The translations under genes and the position numbers were made by a program. The notes beneath the pieces were generated by a model, which did no database searches, had not been told where the DNA came from, and worked only from the letters and a program-made list of their open reading frames with translations. From Pilasporangium apinafurcum (Eukaryota > Oomycota > Peronosporomycetes > Pythiales > Pythiaceae), in assembly GCA_001600495.1 (NCBI GenBank), contig BCKE01000069.1, forward strand, positions 152,119-216,118: DNA of 64,000 nt, written 5' to 3'. This document shows, in pieces, positions 8,167 through 55,893 of this stretch; position 1 is the first letter of the stretch; each line of letters opens with the position of its first letter.

Positions 8167-8496
8167 GCTGTCGTGTTGGTCTGCTTTCTCCGTTCTCCAA
8201 GTGCAAGTGTAAGTGCAAGGCGCACGTTCTTTCCTGCTGACCTGCTTCCTCTCTACCACTGCACCACGCCAATAGAAGACAAAATTTCGTTCGAGGTGAT
8301 GTCCAAGCTATCTTTAACCCGTATTTCCTTTCATTTTAACCTGTTATTAGCATTTCCTGAAGGTATTTTGCCTATCAAGTTTATGGTTATTTTGAGGTTA
8401 CATGACATCATTGAAGTAATTTTTTTACTAGAAACAGTAATTATAACCCTCTTTGTTTCTCTTTTTTGGCTGATATAATCGTGTAGGTTATGCAAA
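8167..8496. promoter_or_regulatory. Divergent promoter region, SCP2 gene / WAPL-like gene
   Basis: 330 bases between two divergent starts. The half next to the WAPL-like gene is T-rich. I see no clear TATA or CCAAT box. Shared regulation is inferred only from layout. Confidence 0.4.
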
Positions 8497-11400
8497 ATGG
8501 CACCACCAGCAACAGTTGGCGCAGATGACGATATCGTCATGCAGCCGTCTTCTCCTATTGCTGTAGCAGATCCTGCGCGTAACAACAGAAGTAGTACTAA
8601 AGCACGTGCAGGTCAATTGGACATGCTGTCCTCAACATCCCACCTCCCAGAAGATTTATCTACTAAAGGAAACTACGGTAATGCAACAACCACCGACAGT
8701 GATTTTGAGGCGTTGAAGAGGAAATTTGCCATGTATGGGCGACAGAACGCCCATGTGAGCCACATACAGTCGGATCAGACATCAAGTAGAGTACAGGAGA
8801 TGGATATAGGTGATGGTGAAGGCACTCAGGGATCTACAGCACATTATTTAAGTCCATTGTGCAAGAAGAAAGGTCGGACAAGTAGTCAAGGCCACGCAGA
8901 TGATGAAGTAGTAAGCTCTACGATTCCTGTACTCAAGAACACCATGTTATTACAAGAAAATGGGGAGCTGGCGGCACAATTGGATGAGATTCAGTATCAT
9001 CTCGACGGAATTTTACTTGCAAACAACACAAAAACCAACGATGATTCGGAAAACGTGGGAGGAAGTATTACACACGAAAGGAGATTTACCGACGCCATGA
9101 GCGTCGTGGCGCTCATTAAGTTGCTGCAGCTCGAACAGGTGCAGACAATGATGAAAGTATCGGGTCAAAGCTGGAATTTACACCAAAGGATTCGGAATGT
9201 CATTCTGCTTTTACGTGTAACCAAGCCAAGAACAAGCGCGAGTTTCTCTGCAGATGAAGAAGCGTTTCGACTGGTAGTGGCGGTAATGCTGTATTTCTTA
9301 ACACTGAGCCCGGATTCGGATGAATACACAACCGCAGAGATGCTGGATGTGGTAGTGGGTGCGTTGAAGCATGAAGTCTCTAAAGAAGATATGCATAGAA
9401 ATGACGAAAACTCTAAGGACAAAGCGCGGCATCAACAACAATCAAATATAGCACCGTCGAAGAAGACGTGCTTGAAGCGGAAACAGCCGAAGGTTTTCCA
9501 GGAAATCAATTCCAATATTAAGGCTAACAACGGTCACGACGATGAGTTGGTGTATCATAAACCCAGTGACAGAAGCGGACATCGAGACATGGTTTCGTCT
9601 AAAGACGCGCAAATTCGGAGCGCATTAAGTGAGCTACTAATTGATCACGAAGTTTTTTGTATTGACGGCAAGTTGCACATGTCAATGATGGATGTATTGT
9701 GCATGATCTTGCACAATATTATCCAAGTTGGCGGACCAGAAGAAAATCAATCCACGGTATCCTGTTGCAGTCCAAACAGCGCTCAACGCTACCACAGAAG
9801 AACTCGTCACACAATCACCGGAGCTACGTTTTCCACGATTCTTGCCCGCAAGCAGCAATTGATTGACAATCATGGTCTGGATGTGCTATTCCAAGCACTA
9901 AGTAGGAGGCTCTCCATGTTACAGGCGACTTTCTTCTCGATTCCTGGAACACCTGCGACATTTGAAGCGTCATGTTCATTCCAGCGAATACGAACAATGC
10001 TGCGCGTCTTGGATCAGGGATCGTTCCTCGCAACAAAAGTGCAGCGATATATGTCGAAGCAAAGGCAAGTATTTGAGATACTCCTGCAGCTGATTGATGA
10101 ATTGAGTGAATTGTGCTGGGGAAGGCTTTCGCAGGATCGATGGAGATCAGATCCAACTTTCCTCCATCTGGTGGCAGAGGTGTTATTGGCAGCAATGCGA
10201 GTACTAATCAATTTGACGCACCATAACGAGGAGGCTTCGCGTCATATCTGGCTTCTTGGAGGTACAAACGTGTTGTTTAGCGCATTTTACAAGCTATGGC
10301 GGATAACAAAAAGTTCTTCAAGTAGAGAGAACGCTTCGTCCGGTTCTTTTACGGCAATAATGGAAGACAAAATTGCGTTTGATGGATACCTATTGCTTCT
10401 CAGCGCACTGACGAATTGTATTGAGGTCAGTGATGAAAACAGTGAAGCTCTGTCAACTTGTTCGATCACTGACGAAGATGAACCATCCAATGGTTTGGTA
10501 ACATCTGGCCGTACAACAAGCGTTTGTGAGTTAGTGACGATATTCTTTTTATCCAAAACCCAGTCCTTCATCCATCTGATAGATACGAGTGAAGATCAGC
10601 ATGTGGCAATGGAAGATGACAGTGACCACTGGATTCCGGAAGATGTGATTCTTGCAGGATGTAGCTCACTATTGCTCGGGTGTCTAATGAGATTATCGTC
10701 CAGAAACAGTTCGCTCGTCTTGGAGGCATTGCCAGATAACTCACCCAGACTTTTGTTGCGTGCCTTGAGTGCGTTTGTGGCGTTGCACTCGCAAATTGGG
10801 GCTTTAACACCAGAAGTTGGCCAATCTGTTCTTCAGGTTGAGCAATTTCTCAAGTCATTTCTTGATAAAGACAATCGACCAAATACCACATCGTTTATGA
10901 AGGCAGATAACGTGATGGCCCATGATATAACTCCAGATAGAAACCCCTCTCTATCAAGAATCAAGATGAAGAATGAGCGACTGAGTGGTGAGGATACAGA
11001 AGGAGAAATACTTAGAACTCCAGCAAAAGAATCAAAGAGTGCTGGCATGACAGGTAACAGCACGAGCCGAAGTGGTCCTGATATTCGTTCTCCCTTGACC
11101 ATGAAGGCTAAATTGCAACGCATCACACATATTGACTCCGATTCTGATGAGGATCAATATTCTACGGAGAAGATTGTCACCCCAAAGCGTTCAGTTGCTA
11201 AGAAACCCCAAACCAGACGAGAAGCGAGTCCAAGAAGGACGCCTAATAGATCGACAACCCCGAGCCCTTCGCCTGCTAGGAAGAAAAACGAGAGTCAAAA
11301 GAAGTCTCCACTGAATCCTCCTACTCTTAAACGAGCGCGCTTGGTGATCGCAGACTTGGAAGCAGAATCAGCATTGATTGGACGGCTTGGAAATACAAAT

Positions 11401-12120
11401 AGTGACCGACTCTCCGGGTTCATGGCGTCCACTAAAGACGTCGATATCTTTCGAGATAAGCAGTTGCAAAGTAACAGGAAGGCAAAAAACAAAGACGAAT
11501 GGACTTCAAGAGGAGAGCTTTCAAGCTCGCCAGCACCTAGTCGTTCTCTGACCAGAATACGATCTGACAGCGGCGAAAAGAGCAAGCACAATCAACATAC
11601 TCCGCCACAGAGACTCAAACGAACACAATTACGTGTCACCGACTTGGAGGCGGAATTGGCAAAAGTAATAACAGGTTCTGGTACTCGTAGCAGTAATTTG
11701 TCTTCATTCATGACGTCCACGAAAGACGATGATGTTGAGAGTCTTGATTTTTCCCGAGACATATCTGTCGAACCAAGCAAGAAACGATCCGCGGAGTGGA
11801 GTTTATTGTCTCCGAGGAGAAGTCCACAAAGAAGTCCACAAAGAAGTCCACAAAGAAGTCCACATAGAAGCCCCAAAAGGAGTCCTCCACCATCGGCAGA
11901 ACGAGCCTCGAAACACCGTCTAACAGTAAGAAAGGCACCAACCGTTGGATCGTTCGCGTTCAATACCCCACCCAGGAAGATGGAACGCAAGAAGAAAATC
12001 ACTGGAAGCCCTGCCGTGTTGGAGAACTCACCTTCATTTGAGCGTGGTCAGAAGCGTAAAGCCAAGCGCACACCAGTTCTAGGGACTATTGCCAGTTCCA
12101 TCTTTGACTTTACCGATTAG
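8497..12120 (+). CDS. WAPL-like cohesin-release factor
   Basis: A single uninterrupted frame of 1207 residues from the ATG at 8497. Residues about 140-320 carry the pattern of the WAPL domain start (ELAAQLDEIQYHLDGIL, then an S/T-R-x-S-like helix pair and VALIKLLQLEQVQTMMK), followed by helical repeat-like sequence to about residue 800, as in WAPL/Rad61 which binds Pds5 and opens the cohesin ring on chromatin. Unlike animal WAPL, the low-complexity region is at the C-terminus (about 800-1207): SP/TP and RSP-rich, basic, with two copies of a motif DLEAE...S.FM.STKD (about 955 and 1055) and a tandem RSPQ array encoded by 12-base repeats (11815-11880). TP/SP sites suggest CDK phosphorylation. 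Domain call from pattern reading; other armadillo-type cohesin partners are possible. Confidence 0.65.
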   Translation: MAPPATVGADDDIVMQPSSPIAVADPARNNRSSTKARAGQLDMLSSTSHLPEDLSTKGNYGNATTTDSDFEALKRKFAMYGRQNAHVSHIQSDQTSSRVQEMDIGDGEGTQGSTAHYLSPLCKKKGRTSSQGHADDEVVSSTIPVLKNTMLLQENGELAAQLDEIQYHLDGILLANNTKTNDDSENVGGSITHERRFTDAMSVVALIKLLQLEQVQTMMKVSGQSWNLHQRIRNVILLLRVTKPRTSASFSADEEAFRLVVAVMLYFLTLSPDSDEYTTAEMLDVVVGALKHEVSKEDMHRNDENSKDKARHQQQSNIAPSKKTCLKRKQPKVFQEINSNIKANNGHDDELVYHKPSDRSGHRDMVSSKDAQIRSALSELLIDHEVFCIDGKLHMSMMDVLCMILHNIIQVGGPEENQSTVSCCSPNSAQRYHRRTRHTITGATFSTILARKQQLIDNHGLDVLFQALSRRLSMLQATFFSIPGTPATFEASCSFQRIRTMLRVLDQGSFLATKVQRYMSKQRQVFEILLQLIDELSELCWGRLSQDRWRSDPTFLHLVAEVLLAAMRVLINLTHHNEEASRHIWLLGGTNVLFSAFYKLWRITKSSSSRENASSGSFTAIMEDKIAFDGYLLLLSALTNCIEVSDENSEALSTCSITDEDEPSNGLVTSGRTTSVCELVTIFFLSKTQSFIHLIDTSEDQHVAMEDDSDHWIPEDVILAGCSSLLLGCLMRLSSRNSSLVLEALPDNSPRLLLRALSAFVALHSQIGALTPEVGQSVLQVEQFLKSFLDKDNRPNTTSFMKADNVMAHDITPDRNPSLSRIKMKNERLSGEDTEGEILRTPAKESKSAGMTGNSTSRSGPDIRSPLTMKAKLQRITHIDSDSDEDQYSTEKIVTPKRSVAKKPQTRREASPRRTPNRSTTPSPSPARKKNESQKKSPLNPPTLKRARLVIADLEAESALIGRLGNTNSDRLSGFMASTKDVDIFRDKQLQSNRKAKNKDEWTSRGELSSSPAPSRSLTRIRSDSGEKSKHNQHTPPQRLKRTQLRVTDLEAELAKVITGSGTRSSNLSSFMTSTKDDDVESLDFSRDISVEPSKKRSAEWSLLSPRRSPQRSPQRSPQRSPHRSPKRSPPPSAERASKHRLTVRKAPTVGSFAFNTPPRKMERKKKITGSPAVLENSPSFERGQKRKAKRTPVLGTIASSIFDFTD
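11815..11880 (+). repeat. 12-bp coding tandem repeat (RSPQ array)
   Basis: Four to five tandem units of AAGAAGTCCACA, the last ones diverged, encode RSPQ-RSPQ-RSPQ-RSPH-RSPK. Units are in frame, so copy number can vary without breaking the gene. Confidence 0.9.
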
Positions 12121-40119: not shown

Positions 40120-41352
40120 TTATAGTATGGTGATGGTTCTACTGACACTAGAGCGATCGTCCAGGTCTGTTAGGATAATCATCGTGTCTTGGCTCTGAGT
40201 TTTGTGAAAATCACGCATGCTCTTCGAGTTCACGTATCGAATGGATTTTTCATGGTTGAATGAACGAGTAACGATGTCAATATCCGGTGGCTCATAGCCG
40301 GCGCCAGCACTACAATGGGCACCTTCTTGATTAAGATCACCACACGGGACGAACTCAAACCGAGAAGCTTCGCCACGGATGCTGACGTCGACCAAGACGT
40401 TCTTACCACCATCCCGCACACCGACGTACCGACGGTGCTGGTTCATGCTCTGTAGCGTGCCCGCCGAGGAATATTCCCATTTAATACCTGTAGTACCACG
40501 CAACCAATTCGCCTTCTTCATGCGCAAGTCCCGAAAACAGGAAAACGTTGATCTACTGAACATGTGCCGGCCAGTTGCTTCATGGTAGAAACTTACTTTG
40601 ATGCAATTGTATCCGTTCGAATAGCACTCCATTCTGAATGGTGTACGACCACAGGTCTCTGGATTGTTGCCTTGATGGACAATCCCGACATGTGTGTCGT
40701 CAAAGATGTGCACGTAGTGATCGCCTTTCACACGCAAGTAAACGTTTGAACCCGACAGCGCCAGTACACGATCAACCACTGACTGCGACAGCGCCTTAAT
40801 GCTCTGGATTTCTTTCTCCAGCGCATCGACATCTTCTTTCGCGAGGCGTTTTTCGAATGGTACGCGGCTATTCACTTTTGTCAACACCTGCTTGGACCAT
40901 TGCTGGCCCGTTTTGCACCAATGCGCGGCATGTTCGCAGTTTTGAGTGACAATATTAAAATCTCCACGGCCGAGTCCCAATAAGAATTTGCATCGCGCCA
41001 ACACAACTTCAGGTAAGTCGCTCTTCTTTAAGTGCACTTCGCCCCATTTCGACAGTAAATCGCGCATGCCTGATGTGTGGTACTCGACTAGTCTCAAATT
41101 CTTTGGGCTACGTTTATATAGAAATTCCTCCAATGTCGAAATACGGAAATAAGAGTCAGCCTGGGCATCCGCATACCCTTCCAATGGACTCCAGACATGA
41201 CAAACTTGGATCTCAGCAAAACTCGCACCGGATGTCCAGATGATGCCATGATGCTGATAAGAAATCGGCCAACGACTGTAGTCCCAAATGCAAACATGAT
41301 CTCCTGGACGCAGCGATGCCACATTCTGCACGCGAGTATAAACTCCTCCCAT
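40120..41352 (-). CDS. LRAT-domain protein, paralogue 1
   Basis: 410 residues, one exon, ATG 41352. The first 150 residues are an LRAT/H-Rev107 (NlpC/P60-like) fold: LRPGDHVCIWDYSRWP, the catalytic His in SYQHHGIIW (about 34-35) and the catalytic Cys in QNCEHAAHWC (Cys139, the NCEH box). Such domains are thioester-forming acyltransferases or phospholipases. Residues about 150-205 are a helical linker, and about 215-375 form a beta-rich second part (VYLRVKGDHYVHIFDD, CGRTPFRMECYSNGYNCIKVSFYHEATG, NQHRRYVGVRDG) that I do not recognise; it looks like a trefoil/fascin- or lectin-type binding domain. Tandem with a close paralogue at 41840-43054, same strand, about 490 bases apart. Confidence 0.82.
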   Translation of the reverse strand: MGGVYTRVQNVASLRPGDHVCIWDYSRWPISYQHHGIIWTSGASFAEIQVCHVWSPLEGYADAQADSYFRISTLEEFLYKRSPKNLRLVEYHTSGMRDLLSKWGEVHLKKSDLPEVVLARCKFLLGLGRGDFNIVTQNCEHAAHWCKTGQQWSKQVLTKVNSRVPFEKRLAKEDVDALEKEIQSIKALSQSVVDRVLALSGSNVYLRVKGDHYVHIFDDTHVGIVHQGNNPETCGRTPFRMECYSNGYNCIKVSFYHEATGRHMFSRSTFSCFRDLRMKKANWLRGTTGIKWEYSSAGTLQSMNQHRRYVGVRDGGKNVLVDVSIRGEASRFEFVPCGDLNQEGAHCSAGAGYEPPDIDIVTRSFNHEKSIRYVNSKSMRDFHKTQSQDTMIILTDLDDRSSVSRTITIL

Positions 41353-41839
41353 TTGCTTTACCTGATGACGCAGAATGGCACCGGTGAGTCTTTAATTGCT
41401 TGCATACTGATAGCACAAGATTCATGAGTGCTATTTGCAGGTACACCATGCATTGATGGTACAGTATTATTTATGATTGTGCTATTTATATACTTTTCAT
41501 CTGAGATGGAGCGATCAATGAATCAGTTGTGTTACACATCTGACCCTCCCGAAGAGTTAGATGGCTACATTTTATAACATCACGTCATTGAGCCTCAAGC
41601 TTAAACATACTTTGGTCAGTGATATGAACGCGAGCTTATTACGGATTATACGCTGGACAGACAAACGAATCTACTACTCAGATTTGCATGAAGCAAGCGT
41701 TGATGACTACATCTCTCTCATTCTTATTAAAATGTCTTTCTTCAAAAGGTAAAAGGATATCTGGAGTGTATGTGGAGATGCGGAAGTCCACTTTTTTTCC
41801 AATGAAAGCGATCTGCCTCCTCATCTTCACTTATCCAGA
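41353..41839. other. Spacer between tandem LRAT genes
   Basis: 487 bases with no gene. A/T rich around 41450-41520. It lacks any long similarity to the upstream spacer of the second copy that I could see. Confidence 0.5.
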
Positions 41840-43054
41840 TCAAGCACTTGTGCATATATCTATTTGTTGGACATGTGTGAGCGAGGGTACTCGATGTCTT
41901 GCGACATGCACAGCCGCCTCAAAGTCTCGCATACTGCGTGATTCCATCTGTTTCACTGATAAATCGTGATTGAATGCTCTGGTGACATGGTCAATGTCAG
42001 GTGCTTTGGCCTCATTCGCTGTCCCTTCTGCTTTTCCTTCGCTGGGCTCACATGGAATAAATTCAAATCGCGACGCATCGCCACGAATACTCACATCAAT
42101 CAGCACCAGGTCATCTCGGACACCAACATACCGTCGATGCTGGTTCATACTCTTGAGATTTCCAGCCGACGAGTACTCCCACTTAAGTCCAGTCGTGCCG
42201 CGTGCAAAAATCGCACGTTTCATGCGCAAGTCCCTGAAACAGGAGAACGTCGATCGGCTGAACATGTAGCTATCCGATTCTTCGTGATAAAAACTGACTT
42301 TGATGCAGTTGTAGCCTTTTGAATAGCACTCGAGTTTAAATGCCGTGCGACCGCAAGTCTCGGGGTCGTCTCCTTGCGGCACAGCGGCGACGTGGTTGTT
42401 GTCAATGATTTTCACATAGTGGTTGCCTTTCACACGTAAATACACTTTCATACCGGACAAGGCGAGCACATTGTCCACGACGGACCGCGAAATAGCTTTA
42501 ATATCTTCAATCTCCTTATAGAGCGCATCGACATCTTCCTTGGCGATACGATTCTCGAATGGCACTCGTCCTTTAGCTTTGGTCAAATTCTGCTTACACC
42601 ATTGCTCACCAGTCATGCACCAATGCGCAGCATGCTCGCAATTCTGTTTAAAAATATTGAAATCCCCTTTGCCCAGTCCTAACAAGAACTTGCATCTCGC
42701 TAACACAACCTCGGGTAAATCGCTTTTGGTCAGATGCACTTCACCCCACCTCGACATAATCTCGCGCAATTCGGACGTGTGGTATTCTACAAGCCGTAAA
42801 TGTTTCGGACTGCGTTTATATAGAAATTCTTCCAATGTCGAGATCCGGAAACATGAGTCAGCTTGCGCTTCAGCATACCCTTCTAACGGACTCCAGACGT
42901 GGCAGACGCGGATGTCGGCGAAAGTTTCACCAGATGCCCACACAATACCGTGATGCTGGTACGTAATCGGCCAGCGGCTGTAGTCCCAGATGCAGATGTG
43001 GTCCCCTGGGCGCAGTGACTGTACGTTGTGGATACGCGTGTAGACCCCACCCAT
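41840..43054 (-). CDS. LRAT-domain protein, paralogue 2
   Basis: 404 residues, one exon, ATG 43054. Closely similar to paralogue 1 along the whole length (MGGVYTRIHNVQSLRPGDH, NCEHAAHWCMTG, YLRVKGNHYV, NQHRRYVGVRDD), so the pair arose by tandem duplication. Catalytic His (YQHHGIVW) and Cys (NCEH) are kept. They diverge in the surface-like loops and completely in the last 60 residues, where this copy reads ARHRVPSLTHVQQIDI. Likely the same acyl-chain chemistry with different targeting or partner, which is inference. Confidence 0.82.
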   Translation of the reverse strand: MGGVYTRIHNVQSLRPGDHICIWDYSRWPITYQHHGIVWASGETFADIRVCHVWSPLEGYAEAQADSCFRISTLEEFLYKRSPKHLRLVEYHTSELREIMSRWGEVHLTKSDLPEVVLARCKFLLGLGKGDFNIFKQNCEHAAHWCMTGEQWCKQNLTKAKGRVPFENRIAKEDVDALYKEIEDIKAISRSVVDNVLALSGMKVYLRVKGNHYVKIIDNNHVAAVPQGDDPETCGRTAFKLECYSKGYNCIKVSFYHEESDSYMFSRSTFSCFRDLRMKRAIFARGTTGLKWEYSSAGNLKSMNQHRRYVGVRDDLVLIDVSIRGDASRFEFIPCEPSEGKAEGTANEAKAPDIDHVTRAFNHDLSVKQMESRSMRDFEAAVHVARHRVPSLTHVQQIDICTSA

Positions 43055-43617
43055 CACCTTTATTCACGTCAAACCAGCTCTGTCGGAAGTGTGAGGCTGC
43101 TTTATGTGTATGAAGAGCAAGCACTGAATGAGAGAGTGAACGAAGGAGAGCGCGTTTGGAAGGGACAACGCCTGTGTGTTTGTATATTCTTGTTCGTTTG
43201 ATGGTGGTAGGGATCGCCCTTGTTGTTGCTGCGCATGTGCGAACAAAAGGACGAAATGGCTGAGAAATGGCGGTGTTATGGGCGTAAAATCTGCAATACT
43301 GCTGTATCACATAAACCTCTATTAATGAATAACACTACCAAACTCATTACATATGTTTTAAATAGAGTTATCCTGCTTTCACTCATAAACCTTTTTAATT
43401 AAATATAATTTGGTATATGAATATTATAAAGGGATGAAAGATTTCCGAGACAATCCAACCATACACTTGAAACTGTATGACCAAGTTCAATGAAACAGAC
43501 TGATCTCTGTATGTGTTATGAAAGGTATCCCTTCAATCATTTCGGTAAGTTTAAGTACGCACTCCAAGCACATTGCGTACTTAACATCACACACGCTGAG
43601 AAAAATCGACTGCCGAT
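43055..43617. other. Intergenic, upstream of the LRAT pair
   Basis: About 560 bases with small opposing frames only. The 43300-43480 part is A/T rich. No gene seen. Confidence 0.5.
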
Positions 43618-48966: not shown

Positions 48967-51330
48967 TTAGCCATCAAACTCGAATACATCGGTGGAATTG
49001 ACCCAGATCTCGTCTGTGAGCGCTGTCACATCTTTGTCATTTACTGGTTGAATCAGTTCTGACTTATGAGGAGGGGATTTAGTGGAGACAGCAATAGCAG
49101 GTGAGGGGCGGTCCTTGCTATTGCTACGGGGTCGCTTCGTTGGTGAAGAGGAAGCCATAACGGGGCTCTTGTCGTCACTCAATGACGCACGCTTGCGATT
49201 CACTGACGAAGCAGCAGCAGATGTGGTACTACTGGAACCAGACGCCATGGCATGATCTTCTTGGCTCATGCGAATGACTGCCTGCTCTTCTTTGTGGAAC
49301 TGTTCGTCGCAGATCTCTTGTGCGAGTTCGTTCCAGAGTCCTGTGACCTTCAAATGCGTTTCTAGTTCAGCTTCACTTTGGAAATAGTCCTCCCCTGGAC
49401 GAGCGTTCTTTGGGGTCACGCCTGGTTTAAAGTAATCGTACTCGAAGCGACCAGGCTTGAAATACCACCCGCGCTCGATTAATTTCTTCACAATCTTGCC
49501 CATAGAGATTTTGATTTGTGGCGTAAAAGCAGACTCCATCCTTGTAAACGCTGTAGCACCAAACTTCTTGTTACCGTTGCTCTTCTTCTTGGCTATACTT
49601 GATTCTAATTTGGCTGCTTTAGCTGCTTCTATTGCCTTCAGTCGTTCTGCCTTTGCCTTGGTAGCTTCCGCCTTCGCAACGGCAGCTTCTGCCTTGGCTG
49701 CTTCAAGTGCTTTCTGTTTAGCCTCCCTATTTTCTTGTTGTCGTTTCTCCATCCGCTCTTTCATCCGTCTGCGCTTCTCAATAGCTTCTTGACGAAGCTC
49801 TTCGACCAGTTCGGCGTGTTCGTCACGCAACTGAGACTCGATTGTTTGCCATAATCCGCATGCTTTGATAAACTCTTCTAATTCCGCCGCAGATTGAAAA
49901 TAATTGCCGTTCAAGATGGCCGTCTGTTCGGTGTAATCCGGTGAAAAGTAGTCGTACTCAAATTTTCCACTGCGATGATACCAGCCCATCGTTTGCAGCT
50001 TCTCGTATACCAAGCCAAAAGTGCAACGGAATTCTGGAATATGGAAATTTAATTCCTCATCCTTCCGCTTCGGTTTGTAGTCGCTTGGAGATGGGGTGGC
50101 CATGGCTTTCTTCTTCTTCTTGGTCGACGAAGACTTGCCAGTCGGTGTGGTTTTCTTTGCTGATACTTTCTTGGTCGAACTCGGTGGGGTGACTTTCACA
50201 CCAGAGGTTGTAATTGGACGCTTACCACCACCCGAGGAAGAAGATGAAGCCACTTTAACGGATTGTTTCACGGGCGTGACGAAATTCATAATGGACGCAG
50301 GCTTACCCTGCTTCGGACTCTTCTTTGTGGTCACTGGTGTTTCCACGCCATTGGATTTAGATTTGGAAGGATCTTGTTTCTTTGTAGATGCAGGCGCATA
50401 TTTGTCAAGGTACACCGTGTTGAAATCAATTGACTGCGGACCTTCCACAGATTCTCCAAGTTCGATCACGATGTTCTCATTCGCCAGGGATTTCAGAATC
50501 GCTAGTCGTTTAGTTTGGAAAATCGTGACATTCGGCTGGAAGTCCTCAAAGCGTGTCTTTGGTTGCACAAACCACGTCTCACTACCGCAAGCCATCGTGT
50601 GCCAGCTCAGTTTTTTTTCACAAATGGGCCAAAGTGAATCCCACAGGACCTGATTGTTGATTTTTTCTGAGGATTGGTCTTCATGTTTAAGGGCAAGTTC
50701 GAGATATTTCCAGCATGCTTTGTCTTTGGAGTCAAATACGTTGATATTGGGGCGGAAATTGAAGAATTGGGTGTCAGGCATAGCACAAAACATTGTTCCT
50801 GGACCCTCAGCGACTTGCCATCCTTGATCCAACATGAGCTTCCAAATAGAACCGAAGACAGCCTCAAATTTCTCAACAGTAGATGTGTTTTCATCATCCT
50901 CAATGGGGTTTTCGTTTGTCTCCACTGTATTTATGACGGTCGGAGAAGATTCTCTAACTGTTTCTTCTACCGATTCTTTCGTCTGCATCTTCTCATCGGT
51001 ATCATTGTGCTCGTTCACCTCCCGATCAGCATCCTCATTGCCATTGTCTTGATGGGAAACAGAGGGCTGAGATACTTCAACAGCAGCAACAACAATATCA
51101 CCCGATTGTTCAGCTGTTGTTTCCTCTCCATCAATAGCATCACTCAATACTTGTGTAGATGCTGGAAACGCGTCGTCGTTCATCTCTTCTATCGTCATCT
51201 GCATCGGCTCTGCTTCTGGTTGATCTGCATCCGAGAGCGGCGAAAACCCGCTCCCACGTCCTGACGTGTTCATCACTTCGTCGTCCACAAACTGGTCCAT
51301 AATGCCACTCTCGTAGCCAGATTGAATCAT
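48967..51330 (-). CDS. Four-module GW/YDYF-domain protein (partner of CDC6-like gene)
   Basis: 787 residues, one exon, ATG 51330. Acidic first 145 residues, then four modules in the order A-A-B-B. A1 (about 150-210): SIWKLMLDQGW, F-F-N-F-R-P-N-I-N-V-F-D. A2 (about 218-275): LWPICEKKLSWHTM, W-F-V-Q-P, FQPNVTIFQTK. B1 (about 430-500): LQTMGWYHRSGKFEYDYFSP, YFQSAAELEEFIKACGLW. B2 (about 615-690): LIERGWYFKPGRFEYDYFKP, DYFQSEAELETHLKVTGLW. Between are a Lys/Ser/Pro-rich segment (SSSTKKKKKA), a long Ala/Lys/Glu helix and a basic tail with KRPRSNSK. The same four modules occur in the divergent gene at 51856. I cannot match the module to a named domain. Nuclear, chromatin-associated function is inferred. 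Confidence 0.85.
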   Translation of the reverse strand: MIQSGYESGIMDQFVDDEVMNTSGRGSGFSPLSDADQPEAEPMQMTIEEMNDDAFPASTQVLSDAIDGEETTAEQSGDIVVAAVEVSQPSVSHQDNGNEDADREVNEHNDTDEKMQTKESVEETVRESSPTVINTVETNENPIEDDENTSTVEKFEAVFGSIWKLMLDQGWQVAEGPGTMFCAMPDTQFFNFRPNINVFDSKDKACWKYLELALKHEDQSSEKINNQVLWDSLWPICEKKLSWHTMACGSETWFVQPKTRFEDFQPNVTIFQTKRLAILKSLANENIVIELGESVEGPQSIDFNTVYLDKYAPASTKKQDPSKSKSNGVETPVTTKKSPKQGKPASIMNFVTPVKQSVKVASSSSSGGGKRPITTSGVKVTPPSSTKKVSAKKTTPTGKSSSTKKKKKAMATPSPSDYKPKRKDEELNFHIPEFRCTFGLVYEKLQTMGWYHRSGKFEYDYFSPDYTEQTAILNGNYFQSAAELEEFIKACGLWQTIESQLRDEHAELVEELRQEAIEKRRRMKERMEKRQQENREAKQKALEAAKAEAAVAKAEATKAKAERLKAIEAAKAAKLESSIAKKKSNGNKKFGATAFTRMESAFTPQIKISMGKIVKKLIERGWYFKPGRFEYDYFKPGVTPKNARPGEDYFQSEAELETHLKVTGLWNELAQEICDEQFHKEEQAVIRMSQEDHAMASGSSSTTSAAASSVNRKRASLSDDKSPVMASSSPTKRPRSNSKDRPSPAIAVSTKSPPHKSELIQPVNDKDVTALTDEIWVNSTDVFEFDG

Positions 51331-51855
51331 GTATTTTGTCTGCCTTCAACCTCTCTCTCGAGCTGTCTGTGAATGTGCGGCGTCTTCGTTTCTGATGATC
51401 ACCATTCGCAAATCAAAGATTGGCGCGAAAACATTGGCTGGAGTTCCCGCCTTTCTGCTGATTGGCTAAAATACAAATTTATTTGGATTTTCACACGATT
51501 GTAAGGAAATACTGTAATATCTTGTTGAAGTATATAAATCTAGGTTTAGGTTACCGTTGAAAGAAGCACCAAATTTAAATTGTATACTTTAATAGAAAGA
51601 TACAAAAGTTAATTTTCTTGTTAAATCTTAAATAAATAAATATTTTATGAGATATGGAGTATTTATATAGAGAATATATTTTATCAAGAATACACGGTAG
51701 AATTGAATTTGAGCGAACTTGTTGCTGTTAAGTACGATTCTGTGTTTTCAAATTGCATCAGAAGCGCGCGAAAAGCTACGCACAAAAAGCGCGCAATTTC
51801 CCTTCCACACCCGCTAGCACGAAAAAGAAACTTCAGGAAGAGAAAGAGAGGAAAC
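51331..51855. promoter_or_regulatory. Divergent promoter with E2F-like sites
   Basis: 525 bases between the two module-sharing genes. Sites matching the E2F consensus (TTTSSCGC or its reverse) are seen as TTGGCGCGAAAA (51420-51431), TTCCCGCC (51444-51451), GCGCGCGAAAAG (51764-51775) and AAAAAGCGCGCAAT (51785-51798). An ATTGG (reverse CCAAT) lies at 51461. The central part (51480-51690) is very A/T rich. Confidence 0.55.
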
Positions 51856-54800
51856 ATGACGTTGCACAACGCATGTTCCCCATCTGCACCGCTTCAATGG
51901 GTGAAGCTACGCAACATGCAGGTCTTCTGGCCAGCGTGTGTGTACAAGACCTACTCGGATGCTGTCAAGGTGACCCATGATACTTCGTCATTGCGGTGTC
52001 ACAAGCCCATGCTGGATGCTGAAGACCGCATCGTTTACTTTTTTGGTGTCGGACCACATGCATGTCATGTGCACGGAACTGGACAGGCACCAAACCTACA
52101 GCTCTGTGTGGCACATGAAGACGATATCATTGCTGTGGATTGGAAGCACCACACGCATGCTTTGGTGCAGTTCACTGCGATTTGCCGGCAACATCACATC
52201 GTAGAAGAAAACTTGGCGCGTGCCGAACGGAATAACTGTTTCCAGCGCGCATGCCAAGAAGCGATGAAGTACTGCACAGATGCGATTAACGATGAAGAGG
52301 TACGTTGGCCACACATATGCATGTTCATCAAATTGATGTGGTTGCTGATGGATCCGCGTATATTCAAAAATATAATTCTATGTAGGCAAGTCGAGTATTT
52401 ATGATGTTCCTCATGAATGCCAAAAAAACAAGTAGCCGTGAGGATAAAACAATTGCAGAATCGAAATCAGTCGGACAACGAGAGATTAGTCGACCGATGC
52501 CAATGACATCAAAGCCAGACGTTGCAGCTACACCGAGCCCACATAAAGCGAAGTCTGCAGTAGCACTTCCAGCACCAATGGCTCCGTGGTCATCTCCTGT
52601 GTTTAAATCACCAGATATGAAGGTTGTGGCAGTGAAGTGTTGGCAACAAATGCTCAAGTCAGGTTGGGAAACGATGACCCAAGCAGATGGTCAAGTGCTA
52701 TACAAAATGCCAGGCACACAGTTCTTCAATTTTCGGCCCAATGTTAACATCTTCGACTCACTTGAGAAGGCATGTCAAAAATATCTTGCCACATGGATCC
52801 AGTCAGTCAAGACATCACCCAATGGCAGCAACACGGCAGAAATGGAGACGCTTAGTACCATTTTGTGGCCCATGGCGAAGAAAGCTGGATGGCAAACGAT
52901 GACCAGTGCCAACGAAACGTGGTACATTCAACCCAATACGTCTTTCGATCAATGCATTCCCAACGTCACCATCTTCCGCTCCAAGACCGACGCTATTGCC
53001 AAGTTCCTTGAAAATTCCGTTGGTCTGTTTTCATCTTCAGATGTGGTTGCTGAGCCATCCGCAGAGACTGCTCAGAAAGAGGACAATGAGATCATGGATG
53101 CACAAGTTTCCGATAATGACCATGATAAGAGTGAAAACGAAGGGAGTGAAGAAGATGAAGATGATGACGGAGAAGAAGATGTTGAAGACGATGAAGACGA
53201 AGATGAGGAGAATGCATCAGAAATTGAAGAGGAAATTGAAACCAAACAGGTTGTTACAACACCCGTGAAGCGATTCTTAAAGAGAAAGGAAGTCCTAAAG
53301 CCAACAGCACGGCCCACTGAAGCAGAAAAACCTTCTTCTGTCGCACCTGCAAAGAAAGCTAACGAACCGAAGGCTGTCATCTCTTCGCAAAGCAAAAACG
53401 CTACTGTTTCTTCAGCCAGAGATGCCAGCAAGAAACAGACTCAAACCCAAAAGCCAAAGATTGTCATTCCCCCGTTCAACCTGACATTTGGTAAAATCGA
53501 GCGTGAGCTACGCGCACGCGGATGGTACTGGAAGCCTAATAATCTATTTGGGTGGACGTATTTTCACCCATCCTGTCTAGAAAACAGTGATTCATCGACA
53601 CATATTCCAGGCAAGAATGTTTTCCATGGCCAGTCCGCTCTTGAAGCGTACTTAGAGGAAAGTGGGCTCTACGATGAGATCAGAGAAGACTTGCTACAGG
53701 AGCACAATGAACGTTATTTGGGTTCACCGAAGCCAGCGAAAAAACGCGCTCCTCTCAAGGCCGCACCTGCTAAGCAACAACCGCAGGTAAAGCCATCTGT
53801 AGTAAACACAACAGTTGCAGTCATTAAACCAGTAGCTGTGGTAAAGAGACGATCTAGTCCACGATCGTCTGATGTTGCTGCTACAGAAGCGATCAAGTTT
53901 GGTGCTATTTGGTCTCGACTCTCCGAGAAAGGATGGCACTACAAGCCAGGTCAGTTGGAATATGACTACTTTAAGCCGCATTGCCAAGATGCTCGACATG
54001 GAAAACAAGGCGTCGATTATTTTCCCTGTAAATCGATGCTGATCGAATATTTACACTCAAGTGGTATTTGGGAAAAAACGGCAATGCAGATTCTTCGTGA
54101 TGACCCGATCGATCTGTCATCGGATACGGAAGATGACGAGAACACTGGATACATCAAAACAGCCTCATCAACTAGAAAGAGAAAGAGTAGTAACAATTCT
54201 AAAGCTGATCGAGGTGCAAAACTTTACAACGAAGAAACCCCTACTTCGTCCAAGCACATACGGAAGAGGGCAAAGCAAGATAATGACTTTCATACTCCCA
54301 CTGAGAAAACCCGATCAAAGACGGATTCCAAGTCCGACGAATCGAGCGACAAGGATATTGATGACACGATTTCTCCAGATGGAGCAGGTCCTAAAGACAT
54401 GAATTATGATGCTTCTAGTGGATCAACTCTGCCACGTAGCCTGGCTAATTACTTTACCCCATCACCAGGAACGTCGAAGAATGACAAGAATGGTCGCAGA
54501 TCCGTTGATGTGGAAATGGACGAACCTGAAGCAATGGAAAGCAATCCACGCAAACTAATTTCTGATGCTATCCAACGACTTTCATCTAGCTTCACTCCAT
54601 CGACATTTCAGTACCGCGACAACGAATTTGGAGAGATTCGTGGTTTTCTCTGCAAGTGCTTCGATCAAAACCATGGATCCAGTTTATACATCTCAGGCGC
54701 ACCAGGATGTGGCAAATCAGCACTCCTACAATCAACTAAATCCAAAGTTCAAGAGTTGTATGAAGTAAGCTTGAGTACTGCTTGGCAACATCTTCTCTTC

Positions 54801-55893
54801 AGAGTCTAACTGTTTTTGTTCTGTTCCCATAGGAATACTGCCATAAGGGCGACATGGATAAACTAGTTGTCGCCCATATCAACGCCATGGCATTGACCAA
54901 TACGAGTGCTCTTTTTTGTAACCTTGCTCAAAAGCTTACCACCCAAACATTTTGGGATGGTGACAGTGCGTTTGAAACGATCGAAAAAGTGACCAACTCT
55001 TCATACAAGCGGCCAAAGATGATGTACGCCAAGCTTAACAATTTTAAACTTTGTGGAACCTTGCATTTACAATCACTCATTCTCTTAAATTATTCTTGTT
55101 GCTTAGGATTCTCGTGTTGGATGAGATCGATATTCTACTGAAAAAGAACGGCATTGAAAGTGACCTATGCCGGTTGTTTGAACTCGCGCATCGTCCTACA
55201 CACAAATTCATCCTGATTGGAATTGCCAATCAAGTCGATTTCACAGAACGTTACTTGCCACTGCTCAAACAACAGCTGCCAGACTGCCGCCCTCAGGTAG
55301 TGATATTCAAGCCTTACAGTCACCAAACCATTGAGCAAATCTTGATGGATCGGCTTGGCGGGAAGGAAGTCGCCAAGAAGATACTCAATTTGCATGGTGT
55401 CTCATTCCTTGCACGAAAAGTCGCTTCCACTACTGGCGATATTCGACTAGCGCTCGACACATGTCGACGAATGCTTCAACAGAAACTCGACAGCGGAGAC
55501 GTAAATCTTTTGGACAACCCAACGCCGCTGACAGATATGCTGCGGCTCATCAAGAGTACACTCGAATCGAAAAGCTCGTTGATCATTCAATCGTTGCCAA
55601 GAAACCTCCAGATGATCTTGTTTGCCTCGACTAGACTGCTCTCCATGAGTACGAATTCCGCGACGATTTTCAACGTGGAAGAATTGTACAACTGCTATTG
55701 CGATGTGAGTCAAGACGCGGGTGTATTTAAGCCATTAGCGCATCGCGAGTTTAAAAGCGCATTGGACATTTTGAGCTCCGAAGGGCTTTTGGGTCCAAAT
55801 GAGCTCAAGAAACAACTCGTGAAACTCTTATTTAGTCCAAGCGAACTGCTGCAAAGCTTCCGGAACGACCCGTTCTTCTCGCGTTTCATTTAA
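51856..55893 (+). CDS. ORC1/CDC6-type AAA+ ATPase fused to PWWP-like and four GW/YDYF modules
   Basis: Exons 51856-52299, 52386-54764, 54833-55023 and 55107-55893 join in phase to 1266 residues; first in-frame ATG is 51856. Order: an N-terminal PWWP-like stretch (LQWVKLRNMQVFWPACVYK, about 14-32); module A1 (about 225-285, WQQMLKSGWETM, FFNFRPNVNIFD), A2 (about 300-355, ILWPMAKKAGWQTM, IPNVTIFRSK), an acidic poly-Asp/Glu region, B1 (about 510-590, LRARGWYWKP) and B2 (about 650-718, LSEKGWHYKPGQLEYDYFKP); a Lys/Ser linker; then an AAA+ ATPase of the ORC1/CDC6 group: Walker A GAPGCGKSA (about 919-926), Walker B ILVLDEIDIL, sensor 1 in LIGIANQVDF, sensor 2 region GDIRLALDTCRRML, and a winged-helix end (LAHREFKSALDIL). 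Predicted origin-licensing protein. The usual ORC1 BAH domain is absent. Confidence 0.88.

What the first reader, a model, noticed from the sequence alone, without database searches (positions are those of the whole stretch)
48967..55893. Unnamed four-module array shared by a divergent gene pair, one member fused to an ORC1/CDC6 ATPase
Both proteins carry the same module order A-A-B-B. Type A: hydrophobic helix, (S/G)W, then F-x-P-N-(I/V)-x-(V/I)-F-x-(S/T)-K or similar. Type B: L..(R/K/M)GW(Y/H), K/G-P/G, (E/G)-(Y/W)-(D/T)-YF-x-P, then F-x-(S/C)-x-x-x-L-x-x-(Y/F/H)-(L/I)-x-x-(S/T/C)-G-(L/I)-(W/Y). In one gene this array precedes a full AAA+ licensing ATPase with Walker A/B; in the other it stands alone with basic tails. 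The most economical explanation is local duplication of an origin-binding or chromatin-reading array, giving a dedicated partner. I know of no ORC1 or CDC6 with such modules; ORC1 usually has BAH or PHD.
Basis: partly seen in the sequence, partly recalled or inferred. Interest (0 to 1): 0.85.

Follow-up and report, generated by a model that had tools for sequence, protein, structure and literature searches.

The report
Replication-licensing ATPase with unknown module array
In this eukaryotic genome a gene for a DNA-replication licensing protein (closest to CDC6) carries four copies of an unrecognised, possibly chromatin-binding module, and a related gene next door carries the same four copies without the licensing enzyme.

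Summary
Two head-to-head genes each encode four modules in the order A-A-B-B. One is a single-exon 787-aa protein. The other has four exons (1266 aa) and ends in a CDC6/ORC1-type AAA+ ATPase; one open exon carries all four modules plus Walker A, so the fusion is real at sequence level. A and B are branches of one module family: same predicted helix-strands-helix layout, and a profile similarity that 0 of 200 shuffles reach. The genes are paralogues.

No Pfam family reaches its cut-off for the modules, and no PDB-sequence or Foldseek match is significant. A resemblance to methyl-CpG-binding domains is suggestive for type B only; the modules are not basic. Best reading: a chromatin-tethered CDC6 with a co-regulated ATPase-less paralogue; the chromatin ligand and the partnership are inference. 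No eukaryotic sequence collection could be searched, so distribution and novelty are untested.

The parts
48967..51330 (-). Partner gene: single exon, 787 aa; acidic N-terminus, A-A, basic linker, B, charged linker, B, tail; no ATPase found
   Evidence: codon-usage score highest in this frame of the three tested
50680..50877 (-). Partner module A1
50470..50658 (-). Partner module A2
49819..50034 (-). Partner module B1
49303..49527 (-). Partner module B2 (model: helix, strands, helix; mean pLDDT 82.3)
51331..51855 (.). Shared divergent promoter region, 525 bp, 36% GC
51423..51431 (+). E2F-like site GCGCGAAAA, 92 bp from the partner's ATG
   Evidence: E2F identity recalled
51766..51774 (+). E2F-like site GCGCGAAAA, 81 bp from the CDC6-like ATG
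   Evidence: E2F identity recalled
51856..52299 (+). CDC6-like gene, exon 1: weakly PWWP-like (aa about 14-68)
   Evidence: Pfam PF00855 E 6e-4, 20.7 bits, below the cut-off of 25.6, exon scanned alone; not listed when the whole 1266-aa protein was scanned; coding-type codon usage in the right frame
52386..54764 (+). Exon 2: all four modules, acidic stretch, Walker A
52620..52808 (+). Module A1 (tandem A1-A2 folded, mean pLDDT 79.5)
52842..53024 (+). Module A2
53469..53702 (+). Module B1
53886..54104 (+). Module B2
54696..54719 (+). Walker A GAPGCGKS (aa 919-926)
54833..55023 (+). Exon 3 (between Walker A and B)
   Evidence: introns 52300-52385, 54765-54832, 55024-55106, all GT-AG
55107..55893 (+). 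Exon 4: Walker B, sensor 1, lid, sensor 2, C-terminal winged-helix-like region

Best explanation
The plus-strand gene is a CDC6-type licensing ATPase whose long N-terminal half (weak PWWP-like region, four copies of one helix-strands-helix module, two CDK-type S/TPxK sites) tethers it to particular chromatin. The minus-strand gene is a paralogue of that array that keeps the modules but has no ATPase; both are switched on together at G1/S from a shared promoter with E2F-like sites. The partner would bind the same chromatin feature and help or limit CDC6 recruitment. Shown here: gene structure, fusion, the eight modules and their common ancestry, CDC6-like residues, the promoter motifs. Inferred: chromatin as ligand, G1/S co-expression, any physical or functional partnership.
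For: One 793-codon open exon carries modules and Walker A. AAA families pass Pfam cut-offs (AAA_22 30.3 bits against 27, AAA 27.8 against 21.2); best PDB match human CDC6, E 4.5e-32 (species of PDB chains recalled). 28 diagnostic columns: 13 CDC6-type, 2 ORC1-type, 13 neither. PWWP-like exon 1 with coding-type codon usage. A1 scores best with A1 and A2 with A2 across genes (154 and 141, against 67-94 for the four A1-A2 pairs), and a tree supports the A2 pair at 92, so the A1-A2 tandem looks older than the gene split. Both of the window's GCGCGAAAA sites lie in the 525-bp promoter; 0 of 2000 local dinucleotide shuffles held two. Modules share conserved aromatics (GW, YF), as reader domains often do (recalled).
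Against: No module matches a known reader domain above cut-off: Pfam, PDB-sequence and Foldseek searches gave nothing significant. Module net charges run from -6 to +3, so direct DNA binding by the modules is not favoured. The E2F-like motif was chosen after seeing the promoter; in the whole window neither form is enriched (TTTSSCGC 9 against 7.9 expected; GCGCGAAAA 2, reached by 20 of 100 whole-window shuffles), only the co-location is unusual. The tree does not resolve CDC6 from ORC1 (support 48), and fly ORC1 scores slightly above fly CDC6 (80.4 against 75.1 bits). C-terminal winged helix and lid are below Pfam cut-offs. Rooted on B, the module tree does not recover an A1 pair (55).
Confidence: 0.47

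Rival explanations
1. The modules are protein-protein docking units: the shared arrays join the partner to CDC6 (or both to a third licensing protein) and touch no chromatin themselves.
For: Modules are near neutral; same order in both proteins; shared promoter with paired E2F-like sites; no enzyme domain above cut-off in the partner.
Against: The PWWP-like exon beside the array hints at chromatin, weakly (but); no interaction data of any kind.
Confidence: 0.27
2. The modules are distant MBD-like DNA-binding domains that read a DNA modification (in oomycetes perhaps 6mA, as 5mC was not detected in two Phytophthora species, PMC6211444, passages), placing licensing under control of DNA methylation.
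For: Type B profile versus a four-sequence MBD profile: score 25.7, shuffled-column maximum 17.1, 0 of 150 reach it; all eight modules together: 22.1, maximum 15.4, 0 of 150. Shared pattern GW...YDxY..P...F.S..EL...L. Weak DUF7028 match for A1-A2 (E 0.072; 0.028 for one single module).
Against: MBD was chosen after seeing a likeness; hhalign E 1.7e-4 for one comparison would not survive correction for thousands of families. Type A alone fails (103 of 150 shuffles reach it). No MBD family among the Pfam hits and none among the Foldseek rows shown. Modules are not basic.
Confidence: 0.12
3. The ATPase is this organism's ORC1, or a single ORC1/CDC6, rather than CDC6.
For: Fly ORC1 scores above fly CDC6 (80.4 against 75.1 bits); the five-sequence tree has weak support (48); accessory chromatin domains are described in ORC1 (BAH, PHD; PMC7058166, section 11 read).
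Against: 13 against 2 diagnostic residues favour CDC6; human and yeast CDC6 outscore human and yeast ORC1 (102.7 against 67.9 at most; 71.2 against 42.5; species recalled); no BAH among the 15 families listed.
Confidence: 0.25
4. Gene-model artefact: the array and the ATPase are separate transcripts.
For: No transcript data were available.
Against: One exon holds the modules and Walker A with no stop in 793 codons; the three introns have GT-AG borders and join in frame through Walker B.
Confidence: 0.03

Closest known systems
CDC6 (human, fly, yeast)
   Same: Initiator-type AAA+ ATPase with Walker A/B, sensor 1, sensor 2, lid; more CDC6-type than ORC1-type residues; two S/TPxK sites upstream
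   Different: About 870 aa N-terminal half with a weak PWWP-like region and four modules; the human CDC6 chain in PDB is 560 aa and has no such array (recalled)
ORC1 with BAH or PHD (animals, plants)
   Same: Licensing ATPase carrying putative chromatin-binding domains ahead of it; PMC7058166 describes BAH and PHD in ORC1 (section 11 read)
   Different: No BAH or PHD listed; ATPase residues nearer CDC6; the array is unmatched
PWWP domain
   Same: Exon 1 scanned alone matches about half of the profile, E 6e-4
   Different: Below the family cut-off; not listed in the whole-protein scan; no PDB match
Methyl-CpG-binding domain (MBD)
   Same: GW start and strand-P-strand-F.S-helix pattern in type B
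   Different: Extra N-terminal helix, longer loop, not basic, type A alone does not match, no Foldseek match
WW domain
   Same: Foldseek's two top rows for the A tandem are WW pairs, not significant (E 0.12 and 0.18)
   Different: Phe, not Trp, after the last strand; flanking helices (by eye; WW definition recalled)

Membership tests
CDC6/ORC1 AAA+ initiators | AAA+ core with Walker A and B, sensor 1 and sensor 2 | tested here: met
   GAPGCGKS, ILVLDEID, GIAN, GDIR present; Pfam AAA and AAA_22 above cut-off; PDB E 4.5e-32
CDC6 (versus ORC1) | CDC6-type residues and clustering with CDC6 | tested here: inconclusive
   Residues 13 CDC6, 2 ORC1, 13 neither of 28 diagnostic columns; tree support 48; fly ORC1 above fly CDC6
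CDC6 | C-terminal winged helix | tested here: inconclusive
   Cdc6_C E 6.4e-5, 23.3 bits, below cut-off 25.1
CDC6 | Binds ORC-DNA and loads MCM | not testable with these tools
   needs biochemistry
ORC1 | BAH domain | tested here: not met
   none among the 15 families listed at E up to 5
PWWP | Profile match above cut-off | tested here: not met
   20.7 bits against cut-off 25.6, E 6e-4, exon alone; not listed for the whole protein
MBD | Profile similarity of the modules | tested here: inconclusive
   B: 0 of 150 shuffles reach it; all eight together: 0 of 150; A: 103 of 150; no MBD family listed by Pfam scans
MBD | Basic DNA-binding surface | tested here: inconclusive
   module net charges -6 to +3 argue against it; the surface itself was not examined
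WW | Second conserved Trp after the last strand | tested here: not met
   invariant Phe there in all eight (read by eye)

The most novel reading that the evidence does not exclude
A new reader-domain family, arrayed fourfold, puts origin licensing under direct control of a chromatin or DNA mark through CDC6 instead of ORC1, and a co-expressed ATPase-less paralogue with the same array acts as a dedicated competitor or co-loader at the same sites.
Probability: 0.22. Interest if true: 0.85.

Novelty: new variant of a known kind. Interest (0 to 1): 0.57.

Why it matters
How CDC6 and ORC find origins in eukaryotes without sequence-defined origins is still open. A CDC6-like protein carrying a fourfold unrecognised module array, with a paralogous array-only protein next door under what looks like a shared E2F-type promoter, gives a directly testable case of chromatin-guided (or partner-guided) licensing through CDC6. 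It also offers a small domain family, unmatched in Pfam and PDB, for structure work.

Tried and rejected
Relatives: no whole genome is held for the window. Scans of viral contigs and of genome contigs found 11 to 20 pattern matches each, none confirmed; tblastn of the partner against phage records found none. These collections are prokaryotic or viral, so the nulls say little about eukaryotes. The metagenome collection was not scanned because its stated cap is 0.

Fold: Foldseek against PDB for the A tandem and B, and against viral models for B, gave no match at E 0.001 or better; best E 0.12, 0.27 and 0.71. In the PDB profile search 7 of 12 rows, all at E 0.4 or worse, are toxin or cell-wall-binding repeat chains: chance, not followed.

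Pfam matches to the modules or their surroundings were all at E 0.0036 or weaker and below their cut-offs (DUF7650 0.0036, FAM110_C 0.0055, DUF5630 0.0078, NmrA, DUF7028, EnY2, tRNA_int_endo); treated as chance, DUF7028 as a weak lead only. That DUF7028 is part of plant IDM1 is recall (paper searches found nothing).

Papers: ten searches used; three listed only part of their matches (15 of 30, 10 of 21 and 10 of 12). Among what was listed, no title or abstract start describes a CDC6 or ORC1 with such modules. PMC7058166 (passages and section 11), PMC6211444, PMC2705460 (12 of 22 places), PMC7641849 and PMC2848206 (passages) were looked into; none mentions this architecture in what I saw.

The organism is probably an oomycete or other stramenopile (my recall of gene content and short introns); no test was possible.
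Full report
What is there. The minus strand 51330-48967 is a single open exon of 787 aa. The plus strand 51856-55893 is a four-exon gene of 1266 aa (exons 51856-52299, 52386-54764, 54833-55023, 55107-55893; three GT-AG introns of 86, 68 and 83 bp). The start at 51856 is the first ATG of that open frame. Exon 1 shows the same codon bias as the other exons (0.125 against 0.109-0.125; the other five frames of exon 1 give 0.043 or lower, trained on seven other ORFs of the window).

Modules. Each protein has two type A and two type B units. Pairwise scores within type are far above shuffles (12 of 12 pairs with 0 of 300), between types mixed (8 of 16 pairs with 3 or fewer of 300). Profile A against profile B: score 29.1, hhalign probability 75.5%, 0 of 200 column shuffles reach it (also 78.9%). 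AlphaFold models from very shallow alignments (4 rows for B, 2 for the A tandem) give mean pLDDT 82.3 and 79.5 for the best of five models (the other models 69-79 and 52-78) and the same order: helix, two short strands, a third strand of about two residues, helix. I therefore treat A and B as one family. A six-frame search finds no ninth copy in the 64 kb. Across genes A1 scores best with A1 and A2 with A2; a tree supports the A2 pair (92) but, rooted on B, not an A1 pair (55). For B the order is unresolved: by score the partner's own B1 and B2 are closest (167), while the tree weakly joins B1 with B1 (57).

What the modules resemble. No Pfam family reaches its cut-off. Over the eight modules, six families each hit one module, best E 0.028; consensus sequences gave nothing better than 0.016; exon 2 alone gave DUF7650 at 0.0036, 17.7 bits against a cut-off of 27. 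The profile against all PDB sequences gave best E 0.4, and the type B consensus gave no hit at E up to 10. Foldseek gave no hit at E 0.001. The pattern GW...YDxY..P...F.S..EL...L recalls MBD. The type B profile scores 25.7 against four MBDs and the eight-module profile 22.1, each above all 150 column shuffles, but type A alone does not (103 of 150 reach it). Because MBD was picked by eye, and because the modules are near neutral or acidic (-6 to +3), I leave it as a lead.

The ATPase. Pfam AAA and AAA_22 pass cut-offs; Cdc6_C and the Cdc6/ORC lid are below theirs. Best PDB matches (species recalled): human CDC6 4.5e-32, fly ORC1 3.4e-26, yeast CDC6 5.5e-24, human ORC1 1.1e-23 at best, fly CDC6 1.2e-23. 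Over the core, human and yeast CDC6 beat ORC1 of the same species, but in fly ORC1 is slightly ahead (80.4 against 75.1 bits). At 28 columns that separate the two families in human and fly (columns with a gap in any of those four left out), 13 carry the CDC6 residue, 2 the ORC1 residue and 13 neither; the five-sequence tree is unresolved (support 48). CDC6-like is the better label, not a certainty; the genome could not be checked for a second copy.

Exon 1, scanned alone, is PWWP-like (E 6e-4, 20.7 bits against cut-off 25.6); the whole protein does not list PWWP at E up to 5, and there is no PDB match, so this stays weak. The 525-bp region between the start codons has 36% GC and holds the window's only two GCGCGAAAA sites, 92 bp and 81 bp from the two ATGs; 0 of 2000 local shuffles hold two, and 5 of 2000 hold two of the looser TTTSSCGC. 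Over the whole window neither motif is enriched; only their co-location is unusual. The motif was chosen after reading the region, and E2F control of CDC6 is recalled from other organisms. Both proteins have two S/TPxK/R sites (aa 199 and 440; aa 352 and 729) and a shared short motif P-x-S-(L/I)-x-N-(Y/F) (aa 831 and aa 344); no chance test was made for these.

Mechanism. I favour a CDC6 tethered to chromatin by its N-terminal half, with a co-expressed paralogue that has the same array and no ATPase, acting at the same sites as helper or competitor. Gene structure, fusion, homology and promoter motifs are shown; chromatin as ligand and the partnership are inferred. Near-neutral modules keep the docking model alive.

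Known or new. A study of ORC evolution reports BAH and PHD as accessory domains of ORC1 (PMC7058166, passages and section 11); I saw no mention of such an array. In two Phytophthora species 5mC was not detected while 6mA is present (PMC6211444, passages), which matters only if the organism is an oomycete and the modules read DNA. No eukaryotic protein or genome collection was available, so whether the module is already a named family outside Pfam and PDB, or widespread, is open. I rate it a new variant of a known kind.

Noticed in passing
window 40120-41391 (-) and 41840-43063 (-): Two neighbouring, similar genes, each with an LRAT-type acyltransferase domain (E 2.9e-8 and 1.5e-8) followed by a longer region that looks alike by eye and has no Pfam match at E 1e-4.
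   Followed up: no
window 8479-12120 (+): Long ORF with a WAPL (cohesin release) domain, E 2.2e-6, and a run of RSPQ-like repeats near its C-terminus.
   Followed up: no
window 54432-54452 (+) and 50281-50301 (-): A shared short motif P-x-S-(L/I)-x-N-(Y/F), resembling a degenerate PCNA-binding box (recalled), lies at aa 831 of the CDC6-like protein and aa 344 of the partner; no chance test made.
   Followed up: partly
window 53025-53234 (+): Strongly acidic stretch (aa 362-431, net charge -33) between modules A and B of the CDC6-like protein; the partner has its acidic stretch at the N-terminus instead.
   Followed up: partly
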